64,000 nucleotides of DNA from Terriglobia bacterium (GTDB taxonomy: Bacteria > Acidobacteriota > Terriglobia > Bryobacterales > UBA6623), in assembly GCA_009841225.1 (NCBI GenBank), contig VXMF01000021.1, positions 154,583 to 218,582 of the forward strand. The letters are read 5' to 3'. This document shows, one piece after another, positions 46,506 to 64,000 of this stretch. A model generated the notes under the pieces. That model did no database searches. It worked only from the letters and a program-made list of their open reading frames with translations, and was not told the DNA's origin. The first letter of the stretch is position 1. Each line of letters starts with the position of its first letter. The translations under genes were made by a program, and so were the position numbers.

Positions 46506-46950
46506 CTTACATTTCGCGCCTTCGGATGGAAACCCGAATGGCCCAGCAAGTGCCGTCATGCGGGTCGGCATAGCAGCGGCTTACCTGATACTGCGGCCCC
46601 GTGCCGTTACTTCGCGACACGTCGTCCTTCGATTCAACTCTTACCGAAATGTCCAGTTGAGAGCGTCGGGCCTCGACCAAGCAGTCTCTATGGTCCCAAG
46701 TTCTGTGTCCCTTCCCAGCCACGGCACGAGCCTCGAACGCTCCGAATGGCACCTGCGGGACTTCGTGGAGCCCCGCGATAGACGCGACAGAAACGCTCCG
46801 ACCAGTTCCATCTTCTTCGCTCAGCAATGGCGGGCAAGCGGCGTACTCCATAAACTATTGGGCCTAGCAGAGCCCAACGGAGGCATCCTTGGGGTGGTCT
46901 CCGCCGAACACGTGGGCAAACGAATATAGCTCAGGAGTCACGGGCACTAT
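46506..46950. other. Non-coding gap of 445 bases
   Basis: Between the DUF1553 start and the HerA stop. A 123-codon frame on the plus strand and a 114-codon frame on the minus strand have no family-like pattern. The first 30 bases next to the DUF1553 start also occur near 61.78 kb as part of a pseudogene copy. Confidence 0.5.
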
Positions 46951-48642
46951 TCACCGCTCTTGGCTGCGCCAGCGATTAACAATTGCCTCCACGTCCAAAT
47001 CGTCGAGTCCGACTTTCCATTTCTCGTGAAAGTCCACATCGTCGCTATTTGGCGTCGGATTCGGCTTCTGGAATTGTAAGCGCGTGGGTAGGGGAACTGC
47101 CTCACCTAGGACAAGCGCCTCGCCACGTCCCAGCCCCGCCAAGACACTGACCAAGTCACCCTCACTCTCGGGCACCAAACTTCGGACGTAGTTTTGGTCG
47201 TTCGGGTTCGTGATACGTAGGCAGATAAACGTGCCACACTGCGCAAGCACCGTCTCGGATACCTCGTGTGGACGCTGACTGGCTATTGCAAGACCAACAC
47301 CGTACTTCCGGCCTTCCTTCGCAATTCTCTCCATCGACTTCCGCGACCCCGCGAACTGAGTCTCACTGGTGCGGGGAATATATGCGTGGGCCTCTTCACA
47401 GATGAGGAGGATAGGGAACTCTCGATACTCCGGGTTCCAATAGTTGAATTCGAATGCGAGACGCCCGATCTGAGCCGCAACCGTCGGTCGGACATCGAAC
47501 GGCACTGAAGACAGATCAATCACGGTGATGGCAGCTCTCGGCTCACCCAAGCCAACAAAATCACGCAACAGTGCTCCTAGCGAGGCGGAGGAAGTGCGTT
47601 CCTTCGGCTTGAGCAAGAAATCGTATCGAACATCGTTCATTCTGCTTTCGAGCCGGACGAGGAATCGATCAAACGCACCAAACATCTCTCCGCGCTTTGG
47701 GCCCCTTTGCCCCGTAACCATTTCGCTGTTCTTCGATCTGACAGCCTCGACAAGTTCCTCAAGAGAAAAGTAGACTGGCGTATCGACTGTAACCCTTTCG
47801 AGTCGGAGCGGGGCCATTTCCTTCTCGCGGAGTTGTCTAAGCGTGTCGCGGAAGAAGGCTGTCTGATTGTGTGCCGCTTGCTCAGTTCGGTCAATCAACA
47901 GGTCGCACAACTCGGCATAAGTCATCAGCCAATAGGGGATCTCAAGGTCTCGAGCATCCACATGTCGGACTATTGAGTCGGCAAACGCGAAGTGGCGGGT
48001 TCCGTCATCTCGCTTCCAACAGTACTCACCATGCATGTCTAGGATGATGATGTGGGCCTTGGGCATGACGCTTACGGTCTTCTGGACAAGCGAAGCGACT
48101 GTCCACGACTTGCCCGACCCGGTCTGTCCCAAAATAGCCATGTGCCGACCATACAAGTTTGTGGGATCGAGGTAGACGTTCATTGAAGGGTGCGATGCGA
48201 GGCTTCCAACCGCAAGGCCCTTGGCCTGAAAGCGGTCGAACATCTTTGCGATGTCTCTTGCACCAACAGCATGGACTTGCGCACCCGTCGTCGGGTATCG
48301 TGCAACGCCGCGTTCGAATTCACCAGTTCCAACGATCGACCCTACAGGCGTTAGTCGAGCTACTCGCTTGGCGAACGGCAACCTAGCGGGTGTATCCCCT
48401 GGTGTCTCGATGGTCGGTACGGCAAGGGCCTCTTGTTCGGTCATCCGACTGACGATCGCGATGAGGTGAACTAAGTTCTGTTTGACGGCGACGTATGAGC
48501 CTAGTTGCCCAACCAGCACGTCCTCGTCGCCGATTGTGACGGTTGGCACTCGACCTTGTTCGTCCTCGACCAGTGCTGCCATGAGAAGGTCGCCTTGGAC
48601 GTCTACGACGTGGCCGATCACAGTATTGGTGGAATCTGGCAT
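46951..48642 (-). CDS. herA: HerA-family ATPase of a SIR2-HerA defence pair
   Basis: Predicted hexameric DNA-translocating ATPase. The 563-residue protein has an N-terminal HAS-like barrel, Walker A GQTGSGKSWTV (residues 172-179), Walker B ILLICEEAHAY (about 411-421), and the conserved GRKYGVGLAIASQRPHEVSETVLAQ. The ATG at 48642 follows the SIR2 stop after 3 bases; a TTG one codon earlier would give zero spacing. In known SIR2-HerA systems the ATPase assembles with the SIR2 NADase and activates it on phage infection, causing NAD depletion. No NurA nuclease gene is nearby, which separates it from DNA-end-resection HerA. Confidence 0.9.
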   Translation of the reverse strand: MPDSTNTVIGHVVDVQGDLLMAALVEDEQGRVPTVTIGDEDVLVGQLGSYVAVKQNLVHLIAIVSRMTEQEALAVPTIETPGDTPARLPFAKRVARLTPVGSIVGTGEFERGVARYPTTGAQVHAVGARDIAKMFDRFQAKGLAVGSLASHPSMNVYLDPTNLYGRHMAILGQTGSGKSWTVASLVQKTVSVMPKAHIIILDMHGEYCWKRDDGTRHFAFADSIVRHVDARDLEIPYWLMTYAELCDLLIDRTEQAAHNQTAFFRDTLRQLREKEMAPLRLERVTVDTPVYFSLEELVEAVRSKNSEMVTGQRGPKRGEMFGAFDRFLVRLESRMNDVRYDFLLKPKERTSSASLGALLRDFVGLGEPRAAITVIDLSSVPFDVRPTVAAQIGRLAFEFNYWNPEYREFPILLICEEAHAYIPRTSETQFAGSRKSMERIAKEGRKYGVGLAIASQRPHEVSETVLAQCGTFICLRITNPNDQNYVRSLVPESEGDLVSVLAGLGRGEALVLGEAVPLPTRLQFQKPNPTPNSDDVDFHEKWKVGLDDLDVEAIVNRWRSQER

Positions 48643-48645
48643 CAA

Positions 48646-49680
48646 TCAAACCATCCCTGAGAGCTGCTCGAAGCTCCATAGGTCGCAATGGCCACGGTCG
48701 GTCCTTCCATTGAGCGAGCAACGATTCTCCGTCACGACGATCACATTCGACTTCTTGCTCCAACGGCCCCACGCCCGGTTCGACAGTGTCTTGGTAAATA
48801 TCAGCAGAGTGAAGTCCGTTCGTGCCAATGCAGCCTCGATAACCGCATTCACATGTTCATCGGCGAAGCCGTAGCCGAAGCAGGCCAATCTGTTGATCGG
48901 ATTCGCATCCTGACCCAAGCAACCGCGAAACGCCGACCACAGCGCCGCATAAGGCTGAAGCATGGTTTCATTCGCCTTCCTGCGCTGAGGGGGTATCATC
49001 AGTCGTTTCGAGTTGCTTGGTGGCGACAATCCGTATGGGCAACGTCGTACCCCCTGTTGAGGACATTCATACCAACCCAGTGAGCCGTGAAGCTTCAATA
49101 GATGAATTGGCTTGACAGTCTCGTCGAACTGCCGTCCTTTGTACGTGCCGCGGATCTGACCGATGCGTTCCTCGAACACCTCTGGAGCAAAATAGGCACG
49201 CTCCACACCAAGGAATCCGTCAGAGAGCCGAACTCTGGCAGTCTCTGCGGCACGTTCGACAAGTGGGTCGTAGTTAAGGTTGAACACCTTCACGCTCGGG
49301 TCAGCGCGGTAGGACAGTCGACGGACAAAATCAATGTGTCGGTCGAGATTCGGCTTCATGGGCATGAAATGGTCCGCGATGGCATCAGTAACTAGATGGC
49401 GGTACGGTGTCTCCATGGCACCTCCATCATCGAGCTGATCTAGGGCGTATTCGATACCCGTCGCCCCATCATCCAGCTTGGCTTGGATGTCGGCGCGCTT
49501 CTGAGTATCAGCGATTCCGTCCTTGATGAGGTCCCAAAGTTCGAACGTGAGCGGGTATCCGGTGTTGTCTAGGTACGACGAGCCCGCCCCTAGCAGGTAC
49601 GCCACACGCTGTGCCCGCAGTTGTTCGGTAACCTTGGCCTCTAGTTCGCCGATAAAATCAGGTTCGGCCATCACTAACAT
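48646..49680 (-). CDS. SIR2-like NADase of a SIR2-HerA defence pair
   Basis: Predicted NAD+-cleaving effector of an abortive-infection system. The 344-residue protein carries the Rossmann motif YLLGAGSSYLDNTGYPLT (residues 28-45) and FNLNYDPLVE (133-142, with the Asn and Asp of NYD). The catalytic histidine is His198 in LLKLHGSLGWYE, and FGYGFADEHVNAVIEAAL follows. All key residues are present, so it should be active. There is no separate extra domain. The ATG at 49680 or the one three codons later may be used. A palindrome lies 30 bases upstream of the start. It is followed immediately by the HerA gene on the same strand. Confidence 0.88.
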   Translation of the reverse strand: MLVMAEPDFIGELEAKVTEQLRAQRVAYLLGAGSSYLDNTGYPLTFELWDLIKDGIADTQKRADIQAKLDDGATGIEYALDQLDDGGAMETPYRHLVTDAIADHFMPMKPNLDRHIDFVRRLSYRADPSVKVFNLNYDPLVERAAETARVRLSDGFLGVERAYFAPEVFEERIGQIRGTYKGRQFDETVKPIHLLKLHGSLGWYECPQQGVRRCPYGLSPPSNSKRLMIPPQRRKANETMLQPYAALWSAFRGCLGQDANPINRLACFGYGFADEHVNAVIEAALARTDFTLLIFTKTLSNRAWGRWSKKSNVIVVTENRCSLNGRTDRGHCDLWSFEQLSGMV

Positions 49681-50274
49681 CTACATGCGATCTCAGTTAG
49701 CCCACAGCTAGCAACGTTGCTTGGGATTCGGCTAGAAGGGCCAGTCCCCCCGCCGTCGCAATGGGTAGACAAACCACGAGCTCTAAGTGCATCGAACACA
49801 CCGCGAAATGCTGGAAAGGGCTGTTGGTTGCGTGCAGGCTAGGCTGGAGCAAACGAGGAAGAATCGACAGGACAACCTCGGATGCTGTGATACCACTGTC
49901 GCACGGCGTAGAACTAACGTCTAGACTGACTGACACTCGCCTGACTATGAACGGGTAGTCATCCTCCCGTAGTTTACTGGCTCCCAGCCTCTCGCGCTGC
50001 CGGACTCCGGCGAGGTGCTGGGCGGGCTCTCGCGGCAGCCAAGTACCGCGGGACCGTGCGGGACGCCGACTTGTTCTGAGAGCGGATGAAGAGTACGTTG
50101 TGCGAGCGAAAAGCTCTGAATCGGGGTGCACTCTCCGGTAGATCAACCACCTCAGGTGACGACGCGATGCCACGACCAGCGAAACTTGAGGCTGTTCGGA
50201 ACGGTTACGGGCACGTTTCAATCGCTGCGGCCGCCAGTCAGCGGGCTGGCTTGGCGAAAGAGGGACGGCGCATA
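49681..50274. other. Spacer between the SIR2 and Res genes
   Basis: About 590 bases with no recognised gene. A 65-codon plus-strand frame at 49761-49958 has no family pattern. It should contain the SIR2-HerA promoter and the end of the upstream transcript. A 13-base palindrome GCCGGA-C-TCCGGC at 49999-50011 may be part of a terminator, without a T-run. Confidence 0.5.
49710..49721. promoter_or_regulatory. Palindrome upstream of the SIR2 gene
   Basis: Perfect 12-base palindrome AGCAACGTTGCT, about 30 bases before the SIR2 start. Its half-site AGCAAC also forms the core of the vapB operator candidate at 19.4 kb. A regulatory role is possible but unproven. Confidence 0.35.
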
Positions 50275-53040
50275 TCATTGTTGAGCGATGACATCTTGAA
50301 GAGTCGTGTCGTGGTGGGCATGAAAGCTCGCCTGGTTTACACGAACGTATCGCCATGTCGTTTGCGTTGCGGCGGATACGCGGTCACACCAGTTCTTCAT
50401 CGCAGCATCCTTGATCTCTGTGTCTTCCCAGACACGTCCCTTGGTCTCGACGATCCAGTTGACTTCCCCGTCTGTCGTATTCTGTACAATCACCCAATCC
50501 GGATGGTAAAAGCCGATGGCACCGCTTAGTTTAAGGTAGTCGATTCGAAACTGTGTGCCCGAGTCGCCCTGCTCAGTAGTACCGAGTGCGGCGAAACGGA
50601 GCACGTCGGTCGCAATGCTGTCTAGGAACTCTGCGAAACGACGCTCGAAGTTGTTGTAGGTGGCAACGTAGTTGAACACGGTCCTTTTGGCTTCGAGTGG
50701 TGGCAGGTTCCGGCGCCAGCCGAAGGGCTTTGTCTCGGATAGGTGGAAATCGGCTCTCTCGAACTCGACAGATCGACGCTCGATCGTGAGTTCAGAGATC
50801 TTGCGGGCGAGGTACTTGGCGATACCTTCCTGCAGCTCTGGGCGAGAGAGGTGGGAGCGCAGTGCTGGATCTTCGAGATCAACCGAGTGGCCGAAGCACC
50901 GGGCAGCGACATAGCCCCGGACCGTAGGGTACACCTCTGCGAACCGATTTGGCAGTTTGGCTCGCTCGGTCACCTTGTTGGTGATGGCGGCCAAGAGCTC
51001 GTGTGAGCGAGGCGGCTCTCCGTGGGCCATGTCAATTTGGTGGACCTCGGTCTCCGTCGTAGCGAACTCTAGCCTCAGCGTCACACGAAATGGCTCAGCC
51101 AGGTCGTTCTGGTCGTAGATTGCGTCTAGCGCCTCAACTCTCAACTTAGAGAGTTTCCGGACATCGTGCTTGAGACTGGGTTTGGTGAGGGGGATCGCGA
51201 TGTCGTAGTGAAGCCGTTCCTGAGTTGGCGAGATGATGATTGACGGCACCGGATCGGTTTTGGATTTGGCTACGCCCACGCCCTCAGCCTCAAGTTGTGT
51301 GCGAAGGACATTGAGCAGATTGCGGGTGCCGAGTACTTCCAGCGTTTGCGTTCTGTCCGGGCTGACTTGGGTCATCAGCCGTAGCCCTCGACCGATGACT
51401 TGCTCTGGCAAGATCTCGGCCTTTGCCGTGAACGGGCGAAGGCCAAGGACGACGGTAACGTTTCGGACATCCCAGCCCTCGCGCAGCATCATCACGCTGA
51501 CGATCACTTTGACGTTGCTCTCGGCCGTGTCTATGTCGCGAGCCGCTGCGCGTGCCTTTTCTAAATCCCTCTTAGTGATCTCACCCGCCGAATCGGTGTG
51601 AATCACCAGAACCTCAGTCCCCTTGAAGCCGAACTCTTTGGTCGTCAGCAAGTACTTGCCGATCACGTCGGCGTAGACATTCTTCTCGGTCATGATGAAG
51701 AGCACCGGCCTCATGCCGAGATCCTTGTAGACCTTGTGGTGCTCGTGCCGACGCTGGACCGCCGCTCGCAACCAATAGCCGTACTTTTCACTTATGTTGT
51801 TCTTGGTGACATTGTCTGGATCGTTCTCGGGCTGCTCAGGGTCGTCCTCCTTGGTGACAATGAGCGGTGCCTTGACGATGCGGTCCTCGACGGCTTGGGC
51901 TAGCGGGTAGTCGCACACCGTCCACGGAAAGAACATCCCGTTCTGATCCCGTGGCGTGGCGGAGAAATCAAGCCAGAGCCCCAGCCCCTGTGGTAACGCC
52001 TGACGGATCGCCTGAAGCGATTGAGTCCATTGGAGGTCGTCGTCATGCACGTGGTGAGCTTCGTCGTTCATGACCACGAGGTCCTGAAGTGACTTTAGCC
52101 GCTCCAACATCGAGCGATAGCCCGTAGTGGTGAGGTCTTTAGCGGGCTTCTTGCCCAGCAGCGACTCGATAGCGTTCTGAGGAGTCCATGCCTGATCACG
52201 CGATTCGTAGAGCTGCTGGACATTGGTCAGGAAGAGATTTCCGGACGGGTCGGGCTCTGTGGTTTCACCGCGCAGGATCACCTTTTGGGAAAACGCACTC
52301 AGCCACTCAGGAGGAATCAGCGGCAACTCATGGAAAATTCGATTGGACGCGAAGTCACGCTCGAGCCTCTGATAGACGATCACGTTCGGTGCAACAATCA
52401 GGAAGTTTGTCGATAGCTCCGAGCCAGGAACTCTCTGTTTGTGGAATCGAGCCCAGACGATTGCCATAGCCATCACCCAAGTCTTGCCCGAACCGGTTGC
52501 CATCTTGAAGGCGAAGCGACGCAGATTCTCAGGGGGAAGATCCTGAACACCGTCTACATCAAGTTCTGGCACGTAGCGCAGAAGCTGCCGACGCCCGTCG
52601 ATGGTGGTCTGAAATAAGATGTTGTTGCGGAAGAGGTCCTTCTTGAAAATCGTCGCGTGGGCTTCAATCAGCTTTGCAGCGTCACGTTCGCCGACGATCT
52701 CCACCAGCCAAGCAAGCGTCTCGACCGCCTCGCGTTGGCAATAGTAGTAGCGGAAGGGTACGCTGAGGCCCTTGACTTCGTGATCCTCCTCAAACCAGTA
52801 CTCAAACAGCCGACGGGTGACTTCTGATGCGCCCTCATAGCCGCTGTCTCTCCAAGCGTCGACCTCAATGCGGATTTTCGGTACGAGCAGCAATTGGCTC
52901 GGTCGCCGACCGGAATAGTCGACCCTCCATCCCGTAGCTGCCGCCTCGTCCTTGACAAGATAAGAAGTCGGCTTCTCCCATGGGCGACGACCCGGGACTT
53001 CCGGCAGGTCTTTGTCGTATGCAATGACGGCGTTGGCCAT
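50275..53040 (-). CDS. Type III restriction (Res)-like helicase-nuclease
   Basis: Predicted ATP-dependent DNA translocase and endonuclease, last gene of the four-gene unit. The 921-residue protein has Walker A MATGSGKT (residues 180-187), the DEAD-box-like NDEAHH (325-330), LDFSATPRD and the C-terminal helicase motif LPEQVIGRGLRL. Near the end is a PD-(D/E)xK site: Asp848 in HPDWVIV and Glu865-x-Lys867 in WIVETKGR. This is the order of type III Res subunits. Its ATG follows the methyltransferase stop after 2 bases. The paired Mod gene and the two extra upstream genes distinguish it from an ordinary type III system. Confidence 0.9.
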   Translation of the reverse strand: MANAVIAYDKDLPEVPGRRPWEKPTSYLVKDEAAATGWRVDYSGRRPSQLLLVPKIRIEVDAWRDSGYEGASEVTRRLFEYWFEEDHEVKGLSVPFRYYYCQREAVETLAWLVEIVGERDAAKLIEAHATIFKKDLFRNNILFQTTIDGRRQLLRYVPELDVDGVQDLPPENLRRFAFKMATGSGKTWVMAMAIVWARFHKQRVPGSELSTNFLIVAPNVIVYQRLERDFASNRIFHELPLIPPEWLSAFSQKVILRGETTEPDPSGNLFLTNVQQLYESRDQAWTPQNAIESLLGKKPAKDLTTTGYRSMLERLKSLQDLVVMNDEAHHVHDDDLQWTQSLQAIRQALPQGLGLWLDFSATPRDQNGMFFPWTVCDYPLAQAVEDRIVKAPLIVTKEDDPEQPENDPDNVTKNNISEKYGYWLRAAVQRRHEHHKVYKDLGMRPVLFIMTEKNVYADVIGKYLLTTKEFGFKGTEVLVIHTDSAGEITKRDLEKARAAARDIDTAESNVKVIVSVMMLREGWDVRNVTVVLGLRPFTAKAEILPEQVIGRGLRLMTQVSPDRTQTLEVLGTRNLLNVLRTQLEAEGVGVAKSKTDPVPSIIISPTQERLHYDIAIPLTKPSLKHDVRKLSKLRVEALDAIYDQNDLAEPFRVTLRLEFATTETEVHQIDMAHGEPPRSHELLAAITNKVTERAKLPNRFAEVYPTVRGYVAARCFGHSVDLEDPALRSHLSRPELQEGIAKYLARKISELTIERRSVEFERADFHLSETKPFGWRRNLPPLEAKRTVFNYVATYNNFERRFAEFLDSIATDVLRFAALGTTEQGDSGTQFRIDYLKLSGAIGFYHPDWVIVQNTTDGEVNWIVETKGRVWEDTEIKDAAMKNWCDRVSAATQTTWRYVRVNQASFHAHHDTTLQDVIAQQ

Positions 53041-53042
53041 CG

Positions 53043-55046
53043 TTAGCTAACTTCCACTTCGAAGGCCTGCGAGGTGTCGTTGCCGAAGATATCGATCACT
53101 TTGATGAGGATTCGGTACTTGCCCGGTCCGCTGTATACACGGAGGTCGGAGGCCAGCGCCAGTTTGCGATTCTTGCGGGTGCGGTAGGTGACCCAGCCCT
53201 GCATAAAGGTGTCGTTGTGGAAGTCCCAGTCCACCGCCCAGTAGTCAATGTAGTCCGACCACTTCTGCACCTTGCCGCGAACATCTTTGGGAATCAGCTC
53301 GCTGTTTGGGATGACGAAGTGCTTGAGCGTGACTTGGACGGTGAGACTTTCCACATGCTCGATCTCGGCCTCAAGATACGCCAGTTCGAAGAAGCGAACG
53401 TCGCCCTTGACAGCAGCCTGCTGCTCCATTGCTTCCCGGGGAATCTGAAGCAGCCGCAGCTCTACGCTCTGCTTCTTCGTGGCCTCGACCATCAGGTCGT
53501 ACAGGCCCATCTCCCACTCCCAACCCAGCACGTGCAACTCGCCCAGCTTGAGCTTTCTGCACTCGGCCACAGCAGCATCGATCTCCGTGATCGTCACCGG
53601 TGCATCCACCGCACCGATGTGCACCACGGCTTTGCCTTTCTTGCCATGGAGGTGGGCCAAGCCAACAAGCGGTTGAGCACCGTAGAGTTTGAGGATGAAG
53701 GCGAGGTATTCGTATAGCGCCTGCTCGGTGAGTGACTTGCTTCGCTCTTCATTGAAGGTTACGCCCTGCCAGTATTGACGCTCGTACTTGCCGAGGTTTA
53801 GCACCTCGAAAGGATTGCAGTTCTCGATAGCGAGCAGCCGCTTGCGTGTAACGTGGATACCCCAGCGGCCCAAGTCACACCCTATCCAGCGGCGGCCGAG
53901 TTTCTCAGCTACTGCCAGAGTCGTACCTGATCCGCAGAAGAAATCGGCGACTAGGTCACCTTTATTCGATGATACTCGCAGAATCCGTTCCAGCAACCCT
54001 TCTGGCTTTTGAGTTGCGTACCCAGTCAGTTCACCCGACTGATTATGGATCTTGCTGATGTCTATCCAAATATCCTGTAGTGGCACACCTTCGTGCTCAC
54101 TCTCGTACTTCTTGAGTCTGGGCACACCCCCTTTCTTTTTCGGCCAATGAAGCCTTCCCTCTCGATCATGTTTCTCGAGGGTCTCAACAGGACACCGCCA
54201 ATTGGTACGGATTCCCTTGTATTCATAGTCGTATCCGCCACCCGATAGTCCCCCTGCTGATAGGCTCAGGCGCTGGTACCGCTCCCCACGTTCGTCGTCA
54301 AATTGGTCAAAAAACCTATCAATATATTCCTTCTCAGCGGGTTGACGCAATTCGTTCCAGATACAATTATCTCCCTTTGAATAGTAAAGAATTGCATCGT
54401 GAATCATCCCATATCGGCGTGAATCGCTGTGCCCAAAGGCTCTGCGCCATACAACTTCATTTAATGCATGATCTTCGCCGAATATTTCATCACAGAGTAT
54501 ACGGACTAAATGGTTGATATTTGGGCCTATGTGTACATAGACACTACCGGTTTCAGATAGCAGCTCTCGAATCAAGATTAGGCGTTCATAAATCATCTGC
54601 GCGAATGATTCAGTTCCGCGAGCCCATGTGTCACGGTAGGCTTTTTCCTCAATAACCGACTGTTCCTTGACGAGCTCCTCGTTCAAGTCCCCGATGGCGG
54701 TCTTGAACGAGAAATCCGCTCCGGTCGCGAAGGGCGGGTCGATGTAGATTAGGTCGATTTTCCCCGCAAACTTCTCTAGGAGTGATCCCATCACAAGTAA
54801 GTTGTCCCCCCAAATGAGCTTGTTCCGCCAACCCGCCTCGAATGTGTCTCCTTCTTCGCCCGAGTAGATGTCGAATAGAGTGTGCTGCACGTTTCTCTTG
54901 GCGGCCTCGCGTGTGGCGCGACTCTCATTCACTGTCTCGATTACCTGGAGAGGCAAGCTCACGCGTGGCACTTCCTTTAGCGTGCCGTCCTCGCTGTATT
55001 TGCCTGGCCAGATCAACTCCGTCTTGGTGATATTGATCTTTGCCAT
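53043..55046 (-). CDS. Type III-like DNA methyltransferase (Mod)
   Basis: Predicted adenine (or cytosine N4) DNA methyltransferase that marks self DNA. The 667-residue protein has DPPF at residues 103-106 (LIYIDPPFATGADFSFK) ahead of the AdoMet motif DFFCGSGTT at 368-376, the order of beta-class Mod enzymes. The target-recognition part would lie between about 200 and 340. This stretch of DNA (54.0-54.6 kb) is markedly AT-rich, a sign of exchange of specificity domains by transfer. The C-terminal 230 residues include a beta-rich end (YSGPGKYRILIKVIDIFGND) not usual in short Mod proteins. The start follows the DUF3883 gene stop after 1 base. Confidence 0.9.
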   Translation of the reverse strand: MAKINITKTELIWPGKYSEDGTLKEVPRVSLPLQVIETVNESRATREAAKRNVQHTLFDIYSGEEGDTFEAGWRNKLIWGDNLLVMGSLLEKFAGKIDLIYIDPPFATGADFSFKTAIGDLNEELVKEQSVIEEKAYRDTWARGTESFAQMIYERLILIRELLSETGSVYVHIGPNINHLVRILCDEIFGEDHALNEVVWRRAFGHSDSRRYGMIHDAILYYSKGDNCIWNELRQPAEKEYIDRFFDQFDDERGERYQRLSLSAGGLSGGGYDYEYKGIRTNWRCPVETLEKHDREGRLHWPKKKGGVPRLKKYESEHEGVPLQDIWIDISKIHNQSGELTGYATQKPEGLLERILRVSSNKGDLVADFFCGSGTTLAVAEKLGRRWIGCDLGRWGIHVTRKRLLAIENCNPFEVLNLGKYERQYWQGVTFNEERSKSLTEQALYEYLAFILKLYGAQPLVGLAHLHGKKGKAVVHIGAVDAPVTITEIDAAVAECRKLKLGELHVLGWEWEMGLYDLMVEATKKQSVELRLLQIPREAMEQQAAVKGDVRFFELAYLEAEIEHVESLTVQVTLKHFVIPNSELIPKDVRGKVQKWSDYIDYWAVDWDFHNDTFMQGWVTYRTRKNRKLALASDLRVYSGPGKYRILIKVIDIFGNDTSQAFEVEVS

Positions 55047-55047
55047 A

Positions 55048-58000
55048 TCAGTCAGATCTCTCGGTGTGCTGCTTCGGGTACATTTCGGCTATCTCGAGCC
55101 AGCCGTGGTCGAAAGTGAAGGTACGGGCATTGTCGTACGGGGACCGGATGCGGACGATTCGGGCATCGTCTGAATTCGCCCTCTCGACCACATAGAGCCA
55201 GTACGCATGGCCGTGCTTGCGGGCAGAATCGAGCTGAGTTCGAGACAGTCCGACCGGACGGTCGGTAAGGCTGCCGGTCATAGCCTTCACTTCACACCAC
55301 TGGCTCGGCCGTTTATCCAGTCCGATCTTGTAGAGATCGAAACCCGGGTTGTGCGTCGGTGTCCGCAGCCATTCGGGTTCAACCGACAGTATCAACTCAA
55401 TGGCCTTCTTCTCAAGTGCCAAACGCATAGGATGGTCCAAGCCATCGGGGTCAGAGTCCTGGTCATCGCAGTGCGTCCCGACGTATGAAACGAACGGCCG
55501 TCCTCCTACGCTTCCCAAAGTGCGCCTACGAGTTAACGCAGTGCCGCTTCCATTACGGCTGTACTCGCGGCCTCCCACCGGTCGAGGTTCCACTCCGCTG
55601 AGCTCCACACCGGGGGGTGTAGGCGGCTCTGTGACGCCGCCAAGCAGATTCTGCACTGCGTTCTGGACGTCGCTAGGACTAGTTCCGTTCTGAGTATCGT
55701 GCTCCCCCTGCACGCCGAGCCGCTCTCGAAGGTCAGCCTCGCTTGTAACCCCTAGATTCCTCAGCAGGTCCAAGACCCCCGGCTCGATGCCAGCCTCCTT
55801 CGCAAGCTGATCGAGGATCGGCGGCTTAAAGCAAATCTTGGAGAGCAAGAACGGATTTGACTTCCAGCCGAGCGCCTCGAAGGTTACGAGACTAGGGTAT
55901 TGCAGATCGCCGTTCGCGTCTGGTACCCAAGCCGTCTCATTTAGCTTCCGCACGAATCCGGCGTCCAAGATCGAACTACGAGGTTGGTAGTATGACCAGC
56001 GATACGTCGTCGAGAATATGCTACGGCCACGCCTCTCTTGTAGCTCATCGAGAGACTCCCAGAGCAGCCTTGCCTTCTCCAAACGACTTTCCGAGTCGAA
56101 GTGCGGAAGGAGTGCCAAGAGACTTTCTAGCCCTCGCAGTGTCTGATCCTGAATTGGTTGCTCGCCCGCCATGTCCTCGCAGCCTGCGCTTGCCCGAATC
56201 TCTCGGCGTTGTTCCCAATCGAGGTCGGCATCGCAGCGGATCGGGCAGATGTAACGCGTCACACCGCAGGCTTCGAGCAGTTCACGGATGTCTTCGCCAC
56301 GCAGACACGCATGAGCGTTGTCCACCAGAAGCACGCCAGCAACCTCGGAAAACAACTCCCTGAGGCGTTCCGTTGCCAGATAGACGTCGCCCGGCTTCGA
56401 GAATGACTTGGACGCATCGCATGCGTCGACAGTCTTCACGAACGCCGATTCTCGCAGTGCGTCCAGCAGATTCTCCCGCTGCTCTTTTGAATCTGTGCCA
56501 TACGCATTCAGGATTCGACCAATATCCGCTTCGTAGTCTGTATCGCTCGCAACGACCTTTCGCCGCTGGTATCTCGGCAGAATGTTGTAGACAACGTCAT
56601 CCACAGGGTTGGGCTGCGTCAGTCCAAGTGACTGCAGGAACTTAAGTGACCTCTCACTGACACACACAGCCTTACGCACGACCGGGAAGCTTGTATCGAC
56701 AGGACCTGGGAGAAATGCCTGGGGGTGGCCGTCCGACCGAGGAGGGACTTGCGAGCCGTCCTCCAGCCTAATTAGTGGTAGGCTCTTGAGTCGGCTCCAC
56801 AGGCCGGGTTGCCCGTCTAGAAATTCGTAAAGCTTGCCGACCCAGTCGTCCGGTTGCGCCTCAAGAAACTCGTGATCGAGGCGCTGGATGACTGCCTCCG
56901 GCGTCAGTTCAGCCACATCCAACTCGCGCATCAAGTAGGAGCGAACCTCGGGTGTCCGATCCTGCGTGATCTCACCGCTCAGCCAGACAAGTTGGCCTTC
57001 CTCTGCGCAAAGCGCTGCTAGCTGTGCCGGCGTGAACAGCTCTCGAATTTCCTGAGTACGGCCTAGCCGTGCGCATGTGGCGGCCACGTATCCGGTGTCG
57101 AAACGCGGAAGCAAACGGTCTGACAAGAGTGCTGACTTCGTAGCTTCGTAGAGCGGCGCGAACATACAGGACTCCGGAAATCTCAGCGGATCGAGCGGCA
57201 GGCACTGTAGTGCGGCAGTATCGAGAAGATCATTGTCCCGCAGCCAGACAAGAGCTTTCCGAAGAAGCGAAGCGGTCTTGTTTACGAGGTGCCGGTTCCA
57301 TCCGTCACTGTCTGGTACGTTGTCCCGGCTCGGAGTCGTCCGGTAGGGACCCTGCACAAGGAAGCCGAGGTGGGTCTCCACTGCTGTCGGGAAGAACACC
57401 ACGAGCGGGGAACTGCCAACGCGTCGAATGCGATCTCGTTGCGAGTCGTCTTCTCTAGCCACTGAGAACGCGAGCTCTACATGCCCCGCAAACTTCTCGT
57501 TCTCCGTCTGGACCGCTTGCGAGATGACTAGCCACTCTTCAGCTTGGTCCGGTTGCCCTCGTTGCTGACCGATTACAGTTACTTTACGGATCCCTTCCTC
57601 GATCTCTCTTGACTCCCGGAGATAGTGTCCCATCCGATCGCCGCCCTCAACTCTCCACTGGATCTCCTCGATCTCGTGCAGGAAGAGCAACACCGAGGCG
57701 TTGAGTTTCCCGAGTCCGCGAACGATCTCGTCCTGCTTGGATTCACCAGTTAACTCAAGGGGGATGCTGATGACGGTCTCGTCTGGATCGCGGTCGGTCT
57801 CTGCCACGGCGACCGGCCAGACGTAGTTCTCAATCGCGAAGGCTTCCGAACCGGAGTGGATCTCGGGCCGGTCTGTGAACGCGTAGACCGACTTGAAGCC
57901 GATCCCGAAACGTCCGATCGCCGTTAGATCTTTCGTGCTCTCCGCTATTCCACTGATGCCACGGACATCCCGCTCATCGAATGGAAGACCAAAATGACTG

Positions 58001-58218
58001 ACGCGTAGCATCTTGCCAGTCAGGTGAAACCTAACGGCGCGCGAACCCCGCCAGTCGATGCGACGAGCTAGCGCGTCCTCTGCGTTCTGCAGAAGTTCGA
58101 AAATGAAGTGCGTGCGGTCAGCGTACCGGTTGGCCAAGAGCATCGGCCCAATGCGGCCAATGTCGGTTCCGTACCGTCGTTCGTTGTCATGGCGAATGGC
58201 TTGATAGTCGCAGGACAT
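55048..58218 (-). CDS. GHKL (Hsp90/sacsin-like) ATPase with C-terminal DUF3883
   Basis: Large cytoplasmic protein, 1056 residues, likely a sensor or regulator in the defence unit. The N-terminal Hsp90-like ATPase fold is clear: FIFELLQNAEDAL (residues 38-50) is the N-box and IGRFGIGFKSVYAFTDRP (101-118) the glycine-rich lid, as in sacsin-type proteins. The middle is poorly conserved by eye. The C-terminus is a DUF3883 nuclease-like domain with Asp961 in GFDLY and Glu976-x-Lys978 in QWCEVKAM, a PD-(D/E)xK pattern. Its ATG overlaps the helicase stop (TGATG), so the two are translationally coupled. Whether the DUF3883 domain cuts DNA is unknown. Confidence 0.85.
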   Translation of the reverse strand: MSCDYQAIRHDNERRYGTDIGRIGPMLLANRYADRTHFIFELLQNAEDALARRIDWRGSRAVRFHLTGKMLRVSHFGLPFDERDVRGISGIAESTKDLTAIGRFGIGFKSVYAFTDRPEIHSGSEAFAIENYVWPVAVAETDRDPDETVISIPLELTGESKQDEIVRGLGKLNASVLLFLHEIEEIQWRVEGGDRMGHYLRESREIEEGIRKVTVIGQQRGQPDQAEEWLVISQAVQTENEKFAGHVELAFSVAREDDSQRDRIRRVGSSPLVVFFPTAVETHLGFLVQGPYRTTPSRDNVPDSDGWNRHLVNKTASLLRKALVWLRDNDLLDTAALQCLPLDPLRFPESCMFAPLYEATKSALLSDRLLPRFDTGYVAATCARLGRTQEIRELFTPAQLAALCAEEGQLVWLSGEITQDRTPEVRSYLMRELDVAELTPEAVIQRLDHEFLEAQPDDWVGKLYEFLDGQPGLWSRLKSLPLIRLEDGSQVPPRSDGHPQAFLPGPVDTSFPVVRKAVCVSERSLKFLQSLGLTQPNPVDDVVYNILPRYQRRKVVASDTDYEADIGRILNAYGTDSKEQRENLLDALRESAFVKTVDACDASKSFSKPGDVYLATERLRELFSEVAGVLLVDNAHACLRGEDIRELLEACGVTRYICPIRCDADLDWEQRREIRASAGCEDMAGEQPIQDQTLRGLESLLALLPHFDSESRLEKARLLWESLDELQERRGRSIFSTTYRWSYYQPRSSILDAGFVRKLNETAWVPDANGDLQYPSLVTFEALGWKSNPFLLSKICFKPPILDQLAKEAGIEPGVLDLLRNLGVTSEADLRERLGVQGEHDTQNGTSPSDVQNAVQNLLGGVTEPPTPPGVELSGVEPRPVGGREYSRNGSGTALTRRRTLGSVGGRPFVSYVGTHCDDQDSDPDGLDHPMRLALEKKAIELILSVEPEWLRTPTHNPGFDLYKIGLDKRPSQWCEVKAMTGSLTDRPVGLSRTQLDSARKHGHAYWLYVVERANSDDARIVRIRSPYDNARTFTFDHGWLEIAEMYPKQHTERSD

Positions 58219-61079
58219 CAGTTGCTCGCCTCCTTCGAAATGATGCCGTCAGCATGGCACAGTTTCTTCAAATCGCACTCCTTGCAGATTGTCGTTTCGG
58301 GTGTGGCCGTCACCGCGAACTCACGTGCTTGGATTCGGCGTACCGTCTCATCGAAATAAAGGCCCGCCTCTTCGACGTGCTGCGGATCGTAGGGTAAGAC
58401 CATGAGGGCATTCTCTTTGAGCGGTTCCGATGTCCAGTACAGCATCAGTCGGTCCACATGCCGCCCGTGGCGCCGTTCGAGAATATGAGCGTAGGTGCAG
58501 AGTTGACGCTCGTACGCCGCGATCAAATCGGGGCTGTCGCGCGGACGAGGTGAGGTCTTGAAGTCCAGAAGCTCTAACTTGCCATCACCGCCAAGCACTA
58601 GGTCCACCTTTCCAGATAGGATGTAGCCATCCTTCTCTAGCGAGACGTCGACTTCAGTCTGGACTAACCGGCTCATTTCGTCACGATTCTGACTGAAGTA
58701 GTTCAGCACCTGCATGAGTGCGGCGTCACGGGCCTCATGGCCGATCGGACGAACGTCGCTCAAAGTGAGGAATCGGAATGTGCGGTCAAACAGACCTTCG
58801 ATGCACGGCTCGTCGATCATGTCGAGACTGCCTTCGAGAGCGATCCGATGGATCTCTTCGATAGTCTGGTGCACGAGCAGCCCAAAGAAGATAACCGCCG
58901 AACGCGAGGGCGTAAAGTCATATTCACGAAAGAACTGATACTGGCGTGGGCAGGTTTCATAGATCTTGAGGTCACCGGTGAAGCTATACGTCTTCTTGAC
59001 TGGCGTCCGATCCCGTTCTTCGAATCGCTGGGCGGCCAGGAGGTCCTTCTTCACATATGGCCACTGTGGTAACCCGTGCCAGATTGACGCAAAGTGGTCC
59101 TTAGGTGGCTCGTGCGCTGTGAGCACCAGCAAGTTCTGGGGCCGCGAGAAAGCAACGTAGTGTAGGCGCATGCGATCGAAGGTAGTGATGCGGTCTTCAG
59201 GCTCGAAAGGAGGCCGATGGTAATAAGGGCCGAGATCCCGATCAATCTGCTTGGGGCTTGAAAGCTGTGTTGACAGTGATCCCACCACGACAACCGGAAA
59301 CTCGAGGCCCTTCGCCTGGTGGATGGTCATCACTTGCACGTGGTCTTTAGGAAAGGGCTGATCGGGGTCTTCGTACTCGTTGATGCCGCCATCGTAGAGG
59401 AGGCGCAGGAAACTGTTGAAGAAGTGGAAGCGGAGGGATTCCCGGTTCCGGTGTGTGATAACGGTGTAGTGATAGTACCTTTGAAAAACGTTCAGAAGCT
59501 TCGAGAAAATCGCGACATTGCGGGCGGTGTTCTCGTTGCGTACGGCATGCTTGAACGGATCGAGTGCAAGCAGGCGGTAGAAGTAGTCGGTGGGCCGCAG
59601 GTCGAGTGCTTCACCTTCTTGGAGTGCAGCAATCTCGCCAGTCCACTGCTGGAGAGCAAATGCCAGGGAATGCGGTACACCGAACCGGCGACCAAGCCTA
59701 ACGATGGTGTCATCCACGTACGCGGCGAGTTTAGCCACGGTGCCGCTGACCTGTCCGCGCCCGACGCCGTGCCAGCCGAACAGTACGGCGAAACACGCAA
59801 CAAGATCTCGAATTTCCGTTATTTCGAAGTACGCACGGGCCCGGGGACAAAATGCGGGAATGCCCTTAGCGTGCAGCGCGGCAAGATACGGGGAACTGTG
59901 ATCTTCACGCACGCTATGTAGGAGGAGGGCGATCTGGGAGTAATCTTTGATGACTTGATTCTTCTTCAGGAACTCAATCAGGTCCACAAGCCGTGTCGCT
60001 TCGTCGCGGCGGTCGCGGCCCCAGATGGCAACGACGGATGCGTAGTCAGGATGGGTTGCTGTGGCGCTGGCCTCGATCTTCTTGTCGAAACGGAAGCTTG
60101 CCCCGTGCTGGTTCGACCAGTCGGCTGAAGCCATCCATCGGTCGTAACGTTCCACGATTGCCCGATGGGAACGATAGTTTGTCGTCAACTTAACAGTGGA
60201 ACAGGCCGGTACTTTCTGCGGAAGCTCAAGAATGTTTCGCACTGTCGCCCCGCGGAAGCGATAGAGGCTCTGGTCCTCGTCCCCTACAACACAAAGGTTG
60301 CGACTTGTTTTGGTGAGTTCACTAAGGATTTGCTCCTGTATGTAGTTGGTGTCCTGATATTCGTCCACGAGAACGAATCGAAGGTCACGTGCTACAGCTT
60401 CGGAAGTGCTGCTACCGACGAGCAGGTCATAAAAATAGCGTTGCAAGTGCGCGAAGTCGGTTCGATTGGAATCGAGCAGCGCCCGTTCGTATCGGCGGCA
60501 CGCGTTGCCAATGGCGACGAGGAAGGGGTCGCCGGAACTGGTTAGCTGACTGGGGTCTACGAGTTCTTCCGTGACCTTGTCGATGTAGCGGCGCACCCCT
60601 TCGATTGCTGTCCATCGAGTCCTCCAGCGGTGCAGGAAACAGCCGTTCTCCGGAGGGCCGACGATTGTGTCGAAATGTTCGAGGATGAAGAGAAGTTGCG
60701 TGAGGTCGTCAAGCGTATCGAAACCCGGGCCAAGTTCAGTGAGGTGGCGATGCTGGGAGAGCTCCCGGCTACAGAGGCCGTGGATCGTAGAAATCGTCAG
60801 ATCCGAAAGATCTTCTGCATAGCCGACGGTGCGAGCGGCGGTCGCTACGCGGTCCCGCATCTCGAAGGCGGCCTTCTCGGTGAAAGTGCAGAGCGCGAGC
60901 TGCTTAGGCTGTACCTGCTCCAACAGTAGAAGATTGAGTGCTCTCAGGACGATGCTGTGAGTCTTTCCGGAACCAGGACCGGCAATGACCAGTAGAGGTC
61001 CAGCCAGATGGCCGATGATCGTCCGCTGGGCATCGTTGAGTTCAGGAAAGCGCTGTGTAATTGCGGGCGCGATGGTCAA
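58218..61079 (-). CDS. UvrD-type helicase with C-terminal iron-sulfur PD-(D/E)xK nuclease
   Basis: First gene of the four-gene unit: a superfamily 1 helicase fused to a RecB/AddB-like nuclease, 953 residues. Walker A AGPGSGKTH is at residues 33-41, motif II VDEYQDTN at 238-245, GDEDQSLYRFRGA follows, and motif V appears as VMTIHQAKGLEFPVVV. The nuclease has Asp826 in GKVDLVL and Asp839-x-Lys841 in LLDFKTS. Four cysteines, 710 (YETCPRQYQFF), 932, 935 and 941 (ICKECDLKKLC), form the pattern that binds a 4Fe-4S cluster in AddB and Cas4-like nucleases. The TTG start is the first possible codon after an in-frame stop. Confidence 0.9.
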   Translation of the reverse strand: MTIAPAITQRFPELNDAQRTIIGHLAGPLLVIAGPGSGKTHSIVLRALNLLLLEQVQPKQLALCTFTEKAAFEMRDRVATAARTVGYAEDLSDLTISTIHGLCSRELSQHRHLTELGPGFDTLDDLTQLLFILEHFDTIVGPPENGCFLHRWRTRWTAIEGVRRYIDKVTEELVDPSQLTSSGDPFLVAIGNACRRYERALLDSNRTDFAHLQRYFYDLLVGSSTSEAVARDLRFVLVDEYQDTNYIQEQILSELTKTSRNLCVVGDEDQSLYRFRGATVRNILELPQKVPACSTVKLTTNYRSHRAIVERYDRWMASADWSNQHGASFRFDKKIEASATATHPDYASVVAIWGRDRRDEATRLVDLIEFLKKNQVIKDYSQIALLLHSVREDHSSPYLAALHAKGIPAFCPRARAYFEITEIRDLVACFAVLFGWHGVGRGQVSGTVAKLAAYVDDTIVRLGRRFGVPHSLAFALQQWTGEIAALQEGEALDLRPTDYFYRLLALDPFKHAVRNENTARNVAIFSKLLNVFQRYYHYTVITHRNRESLRFHFFNSFLRLLYDGGINEYEDPDQPFPKDHVQVMTIHQAKGLEFPVVVVGSLSTQLSSPKQIDRDLGPYYHRPPFEPEDRITTFDRMRLHYVAFSRPQNLLVLTAHEPPKDHFASIWHGLPQWPYVKKDLLAAQRFEERDRTPVKKTYSFTGDLKIYETCPRQYQFFREYDFTPSRSAVIFFGLLVHQTIEEIHRIALEGSLDMIDEPCIEGLFDRTFRFLTLSDVRPIGHEARDAALMQVLNYFSQNRDEMSRLVQTEVDVSLEKDGYILSGKVDLVLGGDGKLELLDFKTSPRPRDSPDLIAAYERQLCTYAHILERRHGRHVDRLMLYWTSEPLKENALMVLPYDPQHVEEAGLYFDETVRRIQAREFAVTATPETTICKECDLKKLCHADGIISKEASN

Positions 61080-61487
61080 TGGGGCCGGCCTGACGTAAGC
61101 TGAATCTCTCCTACGCCAACACGGTCAGGAGATCGCTGACAATCCAGTGTAATGTAATGCTCTTCCAATGACTCTCTCGCAGAAGCTGAGCGTCCCCTGA
61201 ACCCTAATGTCCTCTGGTGCCGTAAGCTCTCGAAACGGGCCCGGTTCTCTTTTTTGGATTGCTACGAAGGGCATCTGCGCCCGGGAGCGCCACAAGCCTG
61301 TCCTTCCAGTCTTGTCAGCCCGTCTCAATGCTTTGGACAGCCATCTGTAAGGGCAAGTGATTGTCCCTAACCGTCGTTAACATCATCGTCCGCAGCGGCC
61401 TGCGGTCGGGGTTTCGAGCTGTCTCGACGCGTTAGCCTGTCAGGCGCCAGCCTTCCGCAACAGCAATCGAATCGCCCAACTCACAGT
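61080..61487. other. Upstream region of the helicase gene
   Basis: About 400 bases without a recognised gene; a 67-codon minus-strand frame has no family pattern. It should contain the promoter of the four-gene unit, but I cannot point to clear -35 and -10 boxes. Confidence 0.45.
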
Positions 61488-61802
61488 ACCAATGCGGCCT
61501 CACGCCCCGCCCCTCAACAGCCAGGCCAAGCTGCGCAGATCCAAACCTCCTTCCAGCCGACGCTTGCCATGGCTGGTCTGGCATTGCATCTGGAAGCTTG
61601 GCAGCAAGTCGGATTCGGTCACGCAGAGCTCCTCAGCGGCAGTGCCAGAGCGGCCAGACTAGTCGATCCATACGCTGACCGGGCCAATCTCTGACTCTGG
61701 CAGCTCCTGACCGCCAATAGGCATTTTGCCCAAGCCTACCTTGGCCAGCGGAAAGCTGCCCTCGGCCAAGCCATCTTGCATTTCGCGGGTGCAGATGGAA
61801 AC
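61488..61802 (-). pseudogene. Decayed 5' fragment of a two-cytochrome DUF1553 gene
   Basis: This stretch is similar, base by base, to two separated parts of the intact gene at 43.6-46.5 kb: first 46.01-46.26 kb (second cytochrome domain and the linker before it), then 46.49-46.53 kb (start codon region and leader). The intervening first cytochrome domain is deleted. On the minus strand the linker reads WID, a TAG stop, SGR, where the intact protein has WIDEAGR. The fragment has no DUF1549 or DUF1553 part. Boundaries are approximate, and the left end fades near 61.49 kb. Confidence 0.8.
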
Positions 61803-61972
61803 CAGAATCTATGCGCTACAGCCTGCTATCACCCCGACAAGTCCCGCCAGCGCGGAGGCAAGACCTGCCAAATGCCAGCCTCGTGCGAAGCCTTAGCTGG
61901 TCGGCAGCGATACACTTTGCAGCACGGCAAGGCCGACCCCGGCAGGCCGCCCGCGCTAGAATCAAGCCACTC

Positions 61973-63196: not shown

Positions 63197-63701
63197 CTTG
63201 CTATCGATCGCGACCCTGGTCGCCTGCGCAGCGCCGACGCTCGTAGCCCAGACCTACGGCGTAGGACGCCCAGCCACTGCCGACGAAGTCGCAGCCTGGG
63301 ATGTGACAATCGGGCCGGAGGGGCGCGAACTGCCCGCCGGCAGCGGCACGGCGAAGGACGGCGCGCAGGTCTACGAAGTGCGCTGCAAGGAGTGCCACGG
63401 CGACCAAGGCGTGGGCGGCGACCACGCCGGGCTCGTGGGCAAGCCCGAACAACTCAAGCAAACCCCGCCACTCAAGACCGTGGGCAGCTACTGGCCGTAC
63501 GCGACAACCCTGTTCGACTACACTCGCCGGGCCATGCCGTTCGAAGAGCCCGGATCCCTGAGCGCGGACCAAGTCTACGCCGTCACCGCATATATCCTGC
63601 ACCTGAACGGGCTCGTAGCGGAAGACGACGTGTTGGATCGCGAGAGCCTGCCCCAAGTCGTCATGCCGAATCGGGACGGTTTCGTCCGCGACCCCCGCTG
63701 A
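63183..63701 (+). CDS. soxD: SoxD-like c-type cytochrome
   Basis: Electron acceptor partner of the SoxC-like protein in the periplasm. The 172-residue product starts at a GTG inside the end of soxC with GGGAG upstream. It has a signal peptide (LLSIATLVACAAPTLVAQ), one heme site CKECH (68-72) and a likely axial methionine in RRAMPFEEPGSL, and ends LPQVVMPNRDGFV. It is shorter than the two-domain SoxD of Paracoccus, matching the single-heme forms found in other phyla. It converges on ychF, with 21 bases between the two stops. Confidence 0.88.
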   Translation: MQKSSLLSIATLVACAAPTLVAQTYGVGRPATADEVAAWDVTIGPEGRELPAGSGTAKDGAQVYEVRCKECHGDQGVGGDHAGLVGKPEQLKQTPPLKTVGSYWPYATTLFDYTRRAMPFEEPGSLSADQVYAVTAYILHLNGLVAEDDVLDRESLPQVVMPNRDGFVRDPR

Positions 63702-63722
63702 CAAGAGCGGCTGAAGGTCGCG

Positions 63723-64000
63723 TTAGCCGTGCCGGAAGACCAGCACGTCTCCGTCCTGCACGACGTAGTCCTTGCCCTCGAGGCGCAGTTCGCCGCTCTG
63801 CTTGGCCTTTGCATAGCCGCCGTGGGACACAAGCGCGTCCCACTGGATCGTCTCCGCCCGGATGAAGCGCTTGGCAAAGTCGGTATGGACGGTGCCGGCA
63901 GCTAGGACGGCGGAAGCGCCCCGCCGAATCGTCCAGGCGCGGCACTCGGCTTCGCCCGCCGTCAAGAACGACATCAGCCCCAGCAGCTCGTAGGTCGCCG
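63723..64000 (-). CDS. ychF: Obg-like ATPase YchF, C-terminal part only
   Basis: Cytoplasmic P-loop ATPase of the OLA1/YchF family that binds ribosomes and responds to stress. Only the last 92 codons are inside the window; the N-terminal G domain lies beyond the right edge. The visible part is the TGS domain: TYELLGLMSFLTAGEAECRA, then AGTVHTDFAKRFIRAETI and DYVVQDGDVLVF, all strongly family-like. The stop is a TAA at 63725-63723. It has no functional link to the neighbouring soxCD. Confidence 0.93.
   Translation of the reverse strand, partial: ATYELLGLMSFLTAGEAECRAWTIRRGASAVLAAGTVHTDFAKRFIRAETIQWDALVSHGGYAKAKQSGELRLEGKDYVVQDGDVLVFRHG

What the first reader, a model, noticed from the sequence alone, without database searches (positions are those of the whole stretch)
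50275..61079. Four-gene unit: FeS-nuclease helicase, GHKL-DUF3883 ATPase, Mod and Res
Four genes on one strand overlap by 1 base or are spaced by 1-2 bases, so they form one translationally coupled unit of about 10.8 kb. The Mod and Res parts alone would be a type III restriction system, but the two leading genes are a UvrD helicase with a four-cysteine AddB-like nuclease and a sacsin-like GHKL ATPase with DUF3883. Three of the four proteins carry PD-(D/E)xK-type sites. It loosely recalls the helicase-methylase-ATPase (Hma) category of predicted defence systems; I cannot confirm a match, and no described mechanism for this exact set comes to mind.
Basis: partly seen in the sequence, partly recalled or inferred. 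Interest (0 to 1): 0.78.

Follow-up and report, generated by a model that had tools for sequence, protein, structure and literature searches.

The report
Restriction operon carrying a Tiamat-like gene
Four joined bacterial genes form a probable anti-virus unit: a known but untested trio (DNA methylase, DNA cutter, DNA-shredding helicase) with a gene related to a defence gene thought to act alone placed in the middle.

Summary
Four intact genes on the minus strand, joined by a 1-base overlap and 1- and 2-base gaps, encode UvrD helicase + four-Cys PD-(D/E)xK nuclease, a sacsin-type GHKL/NOV_C (DUF3883) protein, Mod and Res. It is not Hma: the methylase is N6/N4-type and no Hma model matches the GHKL or Res proteins. 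Three of the four genes are a known association: Hudaiberdiev 2017 (PMC5704561) reported UvrD-Cas4 beside Mod and Res as its commonest context. I find that trio in Acidobacteriota, Pseudomonadota, Bacillota, Bacteroidota and one phage. The GHKL gene belongs to PADLOC's TmtA family (Tiamat, from memory). It is cargo in a variable slot between uvrD and mod. UvrD and Res diverge in step across loci; GHKL does not. Even so, GHKL-type genes recur with this trio in several separate arrangements, once in a different gene order. Mod has a hypervariable target-recognition region, as in working restriction systems. Verdict: a new variant of a known kind, probably restriction with processive DNA destruction. 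No function was tested.

The parts
58218..61079 (-). uvrD-cas4: SF1 UvrD-type helicase fused to a C-terminal four-cysteine (Fe-S type) PD-(D/E)xK nuclease, 953 aa, TTG start
   Evidence: motifs GPGSGKT, DEYQDT (239), H737, D826, D839-x-K841 and C710/C932/C935/C941 conserved in 11 homologues; homologues start at the same residue (MxIAPAI)
55048..58218 (-). GHKL/sacsin-type ATPase with C-terminal NOV_C (DUF3883) PD-(D/E)xK domain, 1056 aa; TmtA (Tiamat) family, short form
   Evidence: Pfam SACS 9e-15 and NOV_C 1.6e-6; all 9 PADLOC matches are TmtA, best 1.1e-60; profile matches sacsin structures; NOV_C model resembles PD-(D/E)xK enzymes
55048..55476 (-). NOV_C nuclease-like domain (residues 915-1056); D961, E976, K978
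53043..55046 (-). mod: N6/N4 (type III Mod-like) DNA methyltransferase, 667 aa; DPPF at 103, FFCGSG at 369; hypervariable target-recognition region about residues 160-340
   Evidence: nearest solved structure EcoP15I Mod
50275..53040 (-). res: SF2 helicase with C-terminal PD-(D/E)xK site, 921 aa, BPTD_3080-like restriction subunit
   Evidence: NF046055 3.3e-83 below its cut-off, ResIII 8e-18, ATGSGKT/DEAH/SATP/HPDW/ETKG conserved
48646..49680 (-). neighbouring SIR2 gene (344 aa; NYD at 136, LHG at 197), first gene of a SIR2-HerA pair; separate system on the same island
46951..48645 (-). neighbouring HerA-type ATPase (564 aa), second gene of the SIR2-HerA pair
   Evidence: PADLOC HerA 2e-154; NCBIfam HerA_antiphage_2 1.8e-111, below its cut-off
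46540..61764 (.). inserted island carrying all six genes (GC about 0.50-0.59 against 0.63-0.67 outside)
   Evidence: GC; three same-genus genomes have the two flanks joined
46495..46539 (.). left copy of the 45-base direct repeat at the island edge (5' end of the DUF1549-type gene)
61765..61808 (.). right copy of the direct repeat at the island edge

Best explanation
It is an anti-phage restriction unit built from a three-gene core plus one exchangeable module. Proposed mechanism: Mod marks host DNA by adenine (or N4-cytosine) methylation at a site set by its variable target-recognition region. Mod with Res inspects incoming DNA and cuts unmodified sites using ATP. The UvrD-Cas4 helicase-nuclease then loads on the cut DNA and unwinds and degrades it, so that a single cut becomes destruction that cannot be repaired. 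The TmtA-like GHKL protein uses ATP-driven opening and closing to place its own C-terminal nuclease on the same DNA intermediates, either as a MutL-like second cutter or as a backup when phage DNA escapes. Shown here: intact genes and active-site residues, tight gene coupling, recurrence of the trio across phyla, parallel divergence of UvrD and Res, target-recognition hypervariability, and repeated joining of TmtA-like proteins to the trio. Inferred: every biochemical step and the anti-phage function.
For: Trio UvrD-Cas4/Mod/Res in the same order in own-phylum and viral-contig relatives at 56-81% identity and on plasmids of alpha-, beta- and gammaproteobacteria, Enterococcus, Priestia and Bacteroidota and in one phage. 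UvrD and Res identity to the window move together (81/77, 76/78, 68/65, 63/61, 76/74, 58/56, 36/23, 26/27), so they behave as one core, whereas GHKL does not follow (49% where UvrD is 36%, 51% where UvrD is 26%). Mod conserves both ends (about 64-89%) but falls to 10-11% in residues 241-320. SACS/NOV_C in the uvrD-mod slot in five loci (window, L002, L075, L047, L045), divergent beside the trio in G566 (L054), and as Mod-Res-UvrD-GHKL in G470 (L055+L071). Published: UvrD-Cas4 with Mod/Res (PMC5704561); an Fe-S helicase-nuclease beside a type III-like Mod proposed as part of a new restriction enzyme (PMC7430649); GHKL ATPases in restriction operons (PMC2292703); DUF3883 as a nuclease domain (PMC3710099).
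Against: No activity data. Most trio loci lack the GHKL gene, so it cannot be required for core function. Close GHKL relatives also occur alone (G830, G817) or beside an McrBC-like pair (L003). The GHKL ATP site lacks the canonical DxGxG, so hydrolysis is uncertain. Res has no sequence match to any solved structure, so its likeness to EcoP15I Res is only at motif and family-profile level. UvrD-Cas4 could instead be a repair helper.
Confidence: 0.6

Rival explanations
1. Two independent defences packed together: a UvrD-Cas4-assisted type III-like restriction operon and a self-sufficient Tiamat-like (TmtA) gene that happens to have landed in its transcript.
For: Most trio loci have no GHKL. Close GHKL relatives stand alone in G830 and G817 or with other defence genes. 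The slot can hold a Schlafen/HATPase_c_4 protein or nothing. TmtA is listed by PADLOC as a defence gene in its own right; Tiamat as a single-gene system is from memory.
Against: Of seven close GHKL loci reached with GHKL as the query, four sit beside UvrD-Cas4 and Mod/Res (window, L002, G566, G470), where chance adjacency is about 0.003 or less per genome (my estimate). Two different TmtA subfamilies occupy the same slot (window and L045). The genes overlap. A four-part set in a new order exists in G470.
Confidence: 0.3
2. Mod/Res is an ordinary restriction system, and UvrD-Cas4 (with RadC in relatives) is a repair arm that protects the host from self-inflicted cuts.
For: A RadC-like gene lies at the start of uvrD-cas4 in six relatives. 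The 2017 authors considered a RecB/AddB-like recombination role.
Against: The window lacks RadC. The unit is horizontally mobile and patchy (2 of 11 genus genomes), unlike housekeeping repair. UvrD-Cas4 tracks Res.
Confidence: 0.15
3. A non-cutting, methylation-gated exclusion system (BREX-like) in which GHKL and the helicases block phage DNA replication rather than degrade it.
For: Large ATPases beside a methylase resemble that general plan (own knowledge, no tool result).
Against: No BREX or DISARM models are listed for these proteins, and three nuclease sites are conserved.
Confidence: 0.08

Closest known systems
UvrD-Cas4 / Mod / Res loci (Hudaiberdiev et al. 2017, PMC5704561)
   Same: Same UvrD helicase-Cas4-like nuclease fusion beside Mod and Res; Schlafen-type extra genes also seen
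   Different: The section read does not mention a GHKL/DUF3883 gene or RadC; no mechanism tested
Tiamat (TmtA; PADLOC models PDLC03964-03972)
   Same: GHKL/sacsin N-terminus and NOV_C C-terminus; the long slot protein of L045 matches PDLC03969 over its full length (1510 bits)
   Different: Window protein is a 1056-aa short form with partial matches (best 204 bits) and sits inside a restriction operon instead of alone
Type III restriction-modification (EcoP15I type)
   Same: Mod belongs to the EcoP15I Mod family; adjacent Res with SF2 helicase and PD-(D/E)xK
   Different: Res is nearest the BPTD_3080 family with no detectable match to a solved Res; two extra genes in the unit
Bad (bacterial DNA2-like) helicase-nuclease, PMC7430649
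   Same: Fe-S cluster nuclease fused to an SF1 helicase, encoded beside a type III-like Mod
   Different: DNA2-like architecture, not UvrD; no Res or GHKL noted in the passage read
MORC/paraMORC GHKL proteins in restriction operons, PMC2292703
   Same: GHKL ATPase in an operon with SF2 helicase, nuclease and methylase
   Different: Sacsin-type GHKL here; partner helicases include SF1 UvrD; N6/N4-type methylase
Hma (PADLOC 2021, PMC8565338)
   Same: A helicase, a methylase and an ATPase in one operon
   Different: m5C methylase and SNF2/DEAD helicase in Hma; none of these here

Membership tests
UvrD-Cas4/Mod/Res association | UvrD helicase fused to a Cas4-like (pfam12705) nuclease | tested here: met
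   UvrD-helicase 1.4e-60, PDDEXK_1 8e-23, Cas_Cas4 1e-6; four Cys invariant
UvrD-Cas4/Mod/Res association | Type III Mod and Res genes adjacent | tested here: met
   recurs in other genomes
Tiamat (TmtA) | TmtA family protein | tested here: met
   All nine PADLOC matches are TmtA, 1.1e-60 best, in separate N- and C-terminal stretches
Tiamat (TmtA) | Full-length match to a TmtA model | tested here: not met
   Window protein is 1056 aa against models of 1063-1782 and matches only in parts; L045 slot protein does match full length
Tiamat (TmtA) | Protects alone as one gene | not testable with these tools
   Needs phage assays
Type III restriction-modification | Mod with N6 methylase motifs and variable target-recognition region | tested here: met
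   N6_N4_Mtase 4e-42; EcoP15I Mod 8e-29; 10-11% identity in residues 241-320 against about 64-89% at both ends
Type III restriction-modification | Res homologous to EcoP15I-type Res | tested here: inconclusive
   PADLOC REase_III 2.7e-16 and ResIII 8e-18, but no solved Res matched
Type III restriction-modification | ATP-dependent cleavage of unmethylated head-to-head sites | not testable with these tools
   Needs biochemistry
Hma | m5C methyltransferase (HmaB) | tested here: not met
   Methylase is N6_N4 type; Hma definition from PMC8565338
Hma | HmaA helicase / HmaC ATPase models | tested here: not met
   No Hma model among all 9 GHKL hits and all 4 Res hits; only the best 25 of 61 UvrD and 56 Mod hits were shown, none Hma
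PD-(D/E)xK superfamily (NOV_C domain) | alpha-beta-beta-beta-alpha-beta core with D...ExK | tested here: met
   Model pLDDT 68; best Z 9.2 to a SPARDA nuclease, then NhoI, DpnI, Hjc, RecU, EcoRV; D961/E976/K978 invariant in five relatives

The most novel reading that the evidence does not exclude
A four-component restriction machine in which a TmtA (Tiamat-family) ATPase-nuclease works together with Mod/Res and the UvrD-Cas4 degrader, so that part of what is now annotated as stand-alone Tiamat plus type III restriction is really one system, with a fixed operon slot into which different ATPase modules are swapped.
Probability: 0.3. Interest if true: 0.72.

Novelty: new variant of a known kind. 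Interest (0 to 1): 0.5.

Why it matters
Tiamat has no published mechanism that I could find, and the UvrD-Cas4/Mod/Res association, reported in 2017, has no test that I could find. Loci in which the two are joined give a direct handle on both: if TmtA needs, or is improved by, a methylation-guided cutter and a helicase-nuclease, its substrate is cut or unmodified DNA. It also warns that annotation pipelines would probably report one operon as two separate systems.

Tried and rejected
Hma membership: rejected (m5C methylase definition, no Hma model match). BREX and DISARM: no such models listed for these four proteins (only the best 25 of the longer lists are shown). RadC in the window: searched with six RadC proteins, no match. 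Whole-protein model of GHKL from four sequences: mean pLDDT 48, not used except for the order of elements at the C-terminus. GHKL in viral contigs by peptide patterns: none. Promoter and terminator scans: 7 and 9 sites against 6.3 and 13.7 expected, no signal. A tree of 16 GHKL proteins was too weakly supported to count gains exactly. The RadC-like proteins gave no meaningful PADLOC match.

Full report
OBSERVATION. The four genes are real and intact: uvrD-type 58218-61079, GHKL 55048-58218, mod 53043-55046, res 50275-53040, all on the minus strand. The first two share base 58218; the next gaps are 1 and 2 bases. The TTG start of uvrD agrees with the start of homologues (MxIAPAI). Pfam, NCBIfam and PADLOC give UvrD helicase + PD-(D/E)xK/Cas4, SACS + NOV_C, N6_N4 methylase and ResIII.

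ACTIVE SITES. UvrD-Cas4 keeps its helicase motifs, and its four cysteines (710, 932, 935, 941) and D826/D839/K841 are invariant in 11 homologues down to 27% identity. Mod keeps DPPF and FFCGSG; Res keeps ATGSGKT, DEAH, SATP, GRG and HPDW...ETKG. GHKL keeps E41/N45/D48 and GRFGIGFKS but has SHFG in place of DxGxG in all four aligned relatives; its profile finds sacsin first and Hsp90 next among solved structures. Its NOV_C domain, modelled alone, has the PD-(D/E)xK element order, and nearly all of the 50 best solved neighbours are PD-(D/E)xK enzymes (best Z 9.2, 116 residues, 3.7 A) with D961, E976 and K978 conserved. The model is of middling confidence (pLDDT 68), and Z of 8-9 alone would be weak; the uniformity of the list and the motif together make the case. 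This agrees with the published call of DUF3883 as a nuclease domain (PMC3710099).

THE CORE. Relatives of the window's UvrD-Cas4 at 45% or more: window, L002, L075, L017, L018, L019, L020, L021, L045, L046, L047. Mod follows in all eleven; Res follows in eight. In the other three, Mod is interrupted by an unrelated ORF (L002), Res was not found (L021), or the contig ends (L046). More distant relatives (26-37%) have the same trio on plasmids, in genomes and in one phage: L004, L005, L028, L029, L030, L032, L034, L035, L036, L048, L054, L055 and L060. Three distant ones (L031, L033, L049) have no Mod nearby. This trio is prior art: PMC5704561 names it the commonest context of UvrD-Cas4. Identity to the window moves together for UvrD and Res across loci, so they behave as a co-inherited core. 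Mod is conserved at both ends and nearly random in residues 241-320, the mark of target-recognition switching. Within the genus, L002 (genome G968) is 87.5% identical in DNA over window 54721-64000, and the match stops inside mod.

THE SLOT. Between uvrD and mod lies nothing (L018, L019, L020, L021), a Schlafen/HATPase_c_4 protein (L017; L075 has it in addition), two small proteins (L005), a 258-aa protein (phage L060), or a SACS/NOV_C protein (window, L002, L075, L047, L045). L047 adds an HTH/M78-peptidase gene. The L045 slot protein is a 1510-aa full-length match to TmtA model PDLC03969. The window's protein is a shorter TmtA relative. That TmtA is the Tiamat gene rests on my own knowledge; a review reached here lists Tiamat among systems of unknown mechanism.

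IS GHKL LINKED TO THE TRIO? Loci found with GHKL itself as query, 38% identity or more: window, L002, L003 (G347), L054 (G566), L055 (G470), L072 (G830), L073 (G817). Four of seven sit beside UvrD-Cas4 and Mod/Res; window and L002 are one inherited insertion, so three of six are independent. In G566 it is divergent, about 340 bases from uvrD. In G470 the order is Mod-Res-UvrD-GHKL on one strand, with Mod, Res and UvrD only 26-28% identical but GHKL 51%. L003 is beside an McrBC-like pair; L072 and L073 have no such neighbours. L047 and L075 add slot cases but were found through UvrD and so are biased. L075 is a second, diverged copy in the genome that holds L002. More distant SACS proteins pair with SNF2 helicases or with other Mod/Res sets. 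My reading: GHKL is an exchangeable module with a real preference for this trio.

SURROUNDINGS. Directly downstream on the same strand is a SIR2 gene with NYD and LHG motifs and a HerA-type ATPase, a SIR2-HerA pair. The six genes lie in DNA of GC about 0.50-0.59 against 0.63-0.67 outside. In three same-genus genomes (L089, L090, L091) the DUF1549-type gene and the molybdopterin oxidoreductase gene, which flank the island here, are joined, and the two window flanks meet at 46539/61765 with a 45-base overlap. So 46540-61764 is an insertion (or has been lost from those genomes). L002 keeps the same right edge. UvrD-Cas4 occurs in 2 of 11 genus genomes. The names DUF1549 and molybdopterin oxidoreductase for the window flanks rest on reading the sequence and on the Pfam call for the L002 orthologue of the latter.

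MECHANISM. Best reading: methylation-directed cutting by Mod/Res followed by helicase-nuclease degradation by UvrD-Cas4, with the TmtA-like protein as an ATP-driven second nuclease. Shown: genes, motifs, linkage, variability. Inferred: all activities. The two-systems rival keeps substantial weight (0.3), because GHKL is dispensable in most relatives and found alone in some.

NOVELTY. Trio: known association. TmtA: known family. Joining of the two, the slot behaviour, and a RadC-like gene at the start of uvrD-cas4 in six relatives were not described in the papers I could search; most subscription papers are not in that library.

Noticed in passing
   Followed up: partly
window 46540-61764; repeats 46495-46539 and 61765-61808: The six defence genes form a 15.2 kb low-GC island; three same-genus genomes show the empty site with a 45-base overlap of the flanks.
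   Followed up: yes
window 61505-61765: Decayed copy (78% identity) of an internal part of the DUF1549-type gene (46010-46270) at the right edge of the island; suggests insertion into, or recombination between, copies of that gene. Origin not explained.
   Followed up: partly
L017 12892-13836, L018 7801-8967, L019 5835-8105, L021 721-1422, L045 9288-10004, L047 9258-10004: RadC/JAB-domain gene with an N-terminal extension of variable length just before (mostly overlapping) the uvrD-cas4 start in six relatives; absent from the window and L002. A possible further component of the core.
   Followed up: partly
L060 8992-17145 (phage PV036426.1): An Acutalibacteraceae phage carries the whole UvrD-Cas4, 258-aa protein, Mod, Res set.
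   Followed up: no
L002 7139-16602: Locus of a same-genus genome is decayed: uvrD-cas4 frameshifted and mod cut short, followed by an 849-aa ORF without a Pfam match (perhaps a mobile element).
   Followed up: no
L006, L056, L057, L062, L064, L074: A separate recurring pair: SNF2-type helicase (DrmD/HmaA-like by PADLOC in the two scanned) followed directly by a SACS-type GHKL protein, in archaea and bacteria.
   Followed up: partly
L061 799-12890 and L063 2945-12731: Bacteroidota plasmids with Mod, Res and a 1600+ aa protein related to TmtA and annotated with an AAA domain; that of L063 also matches Mokosh helicase models at its C-terminus.
   Followed up: partly
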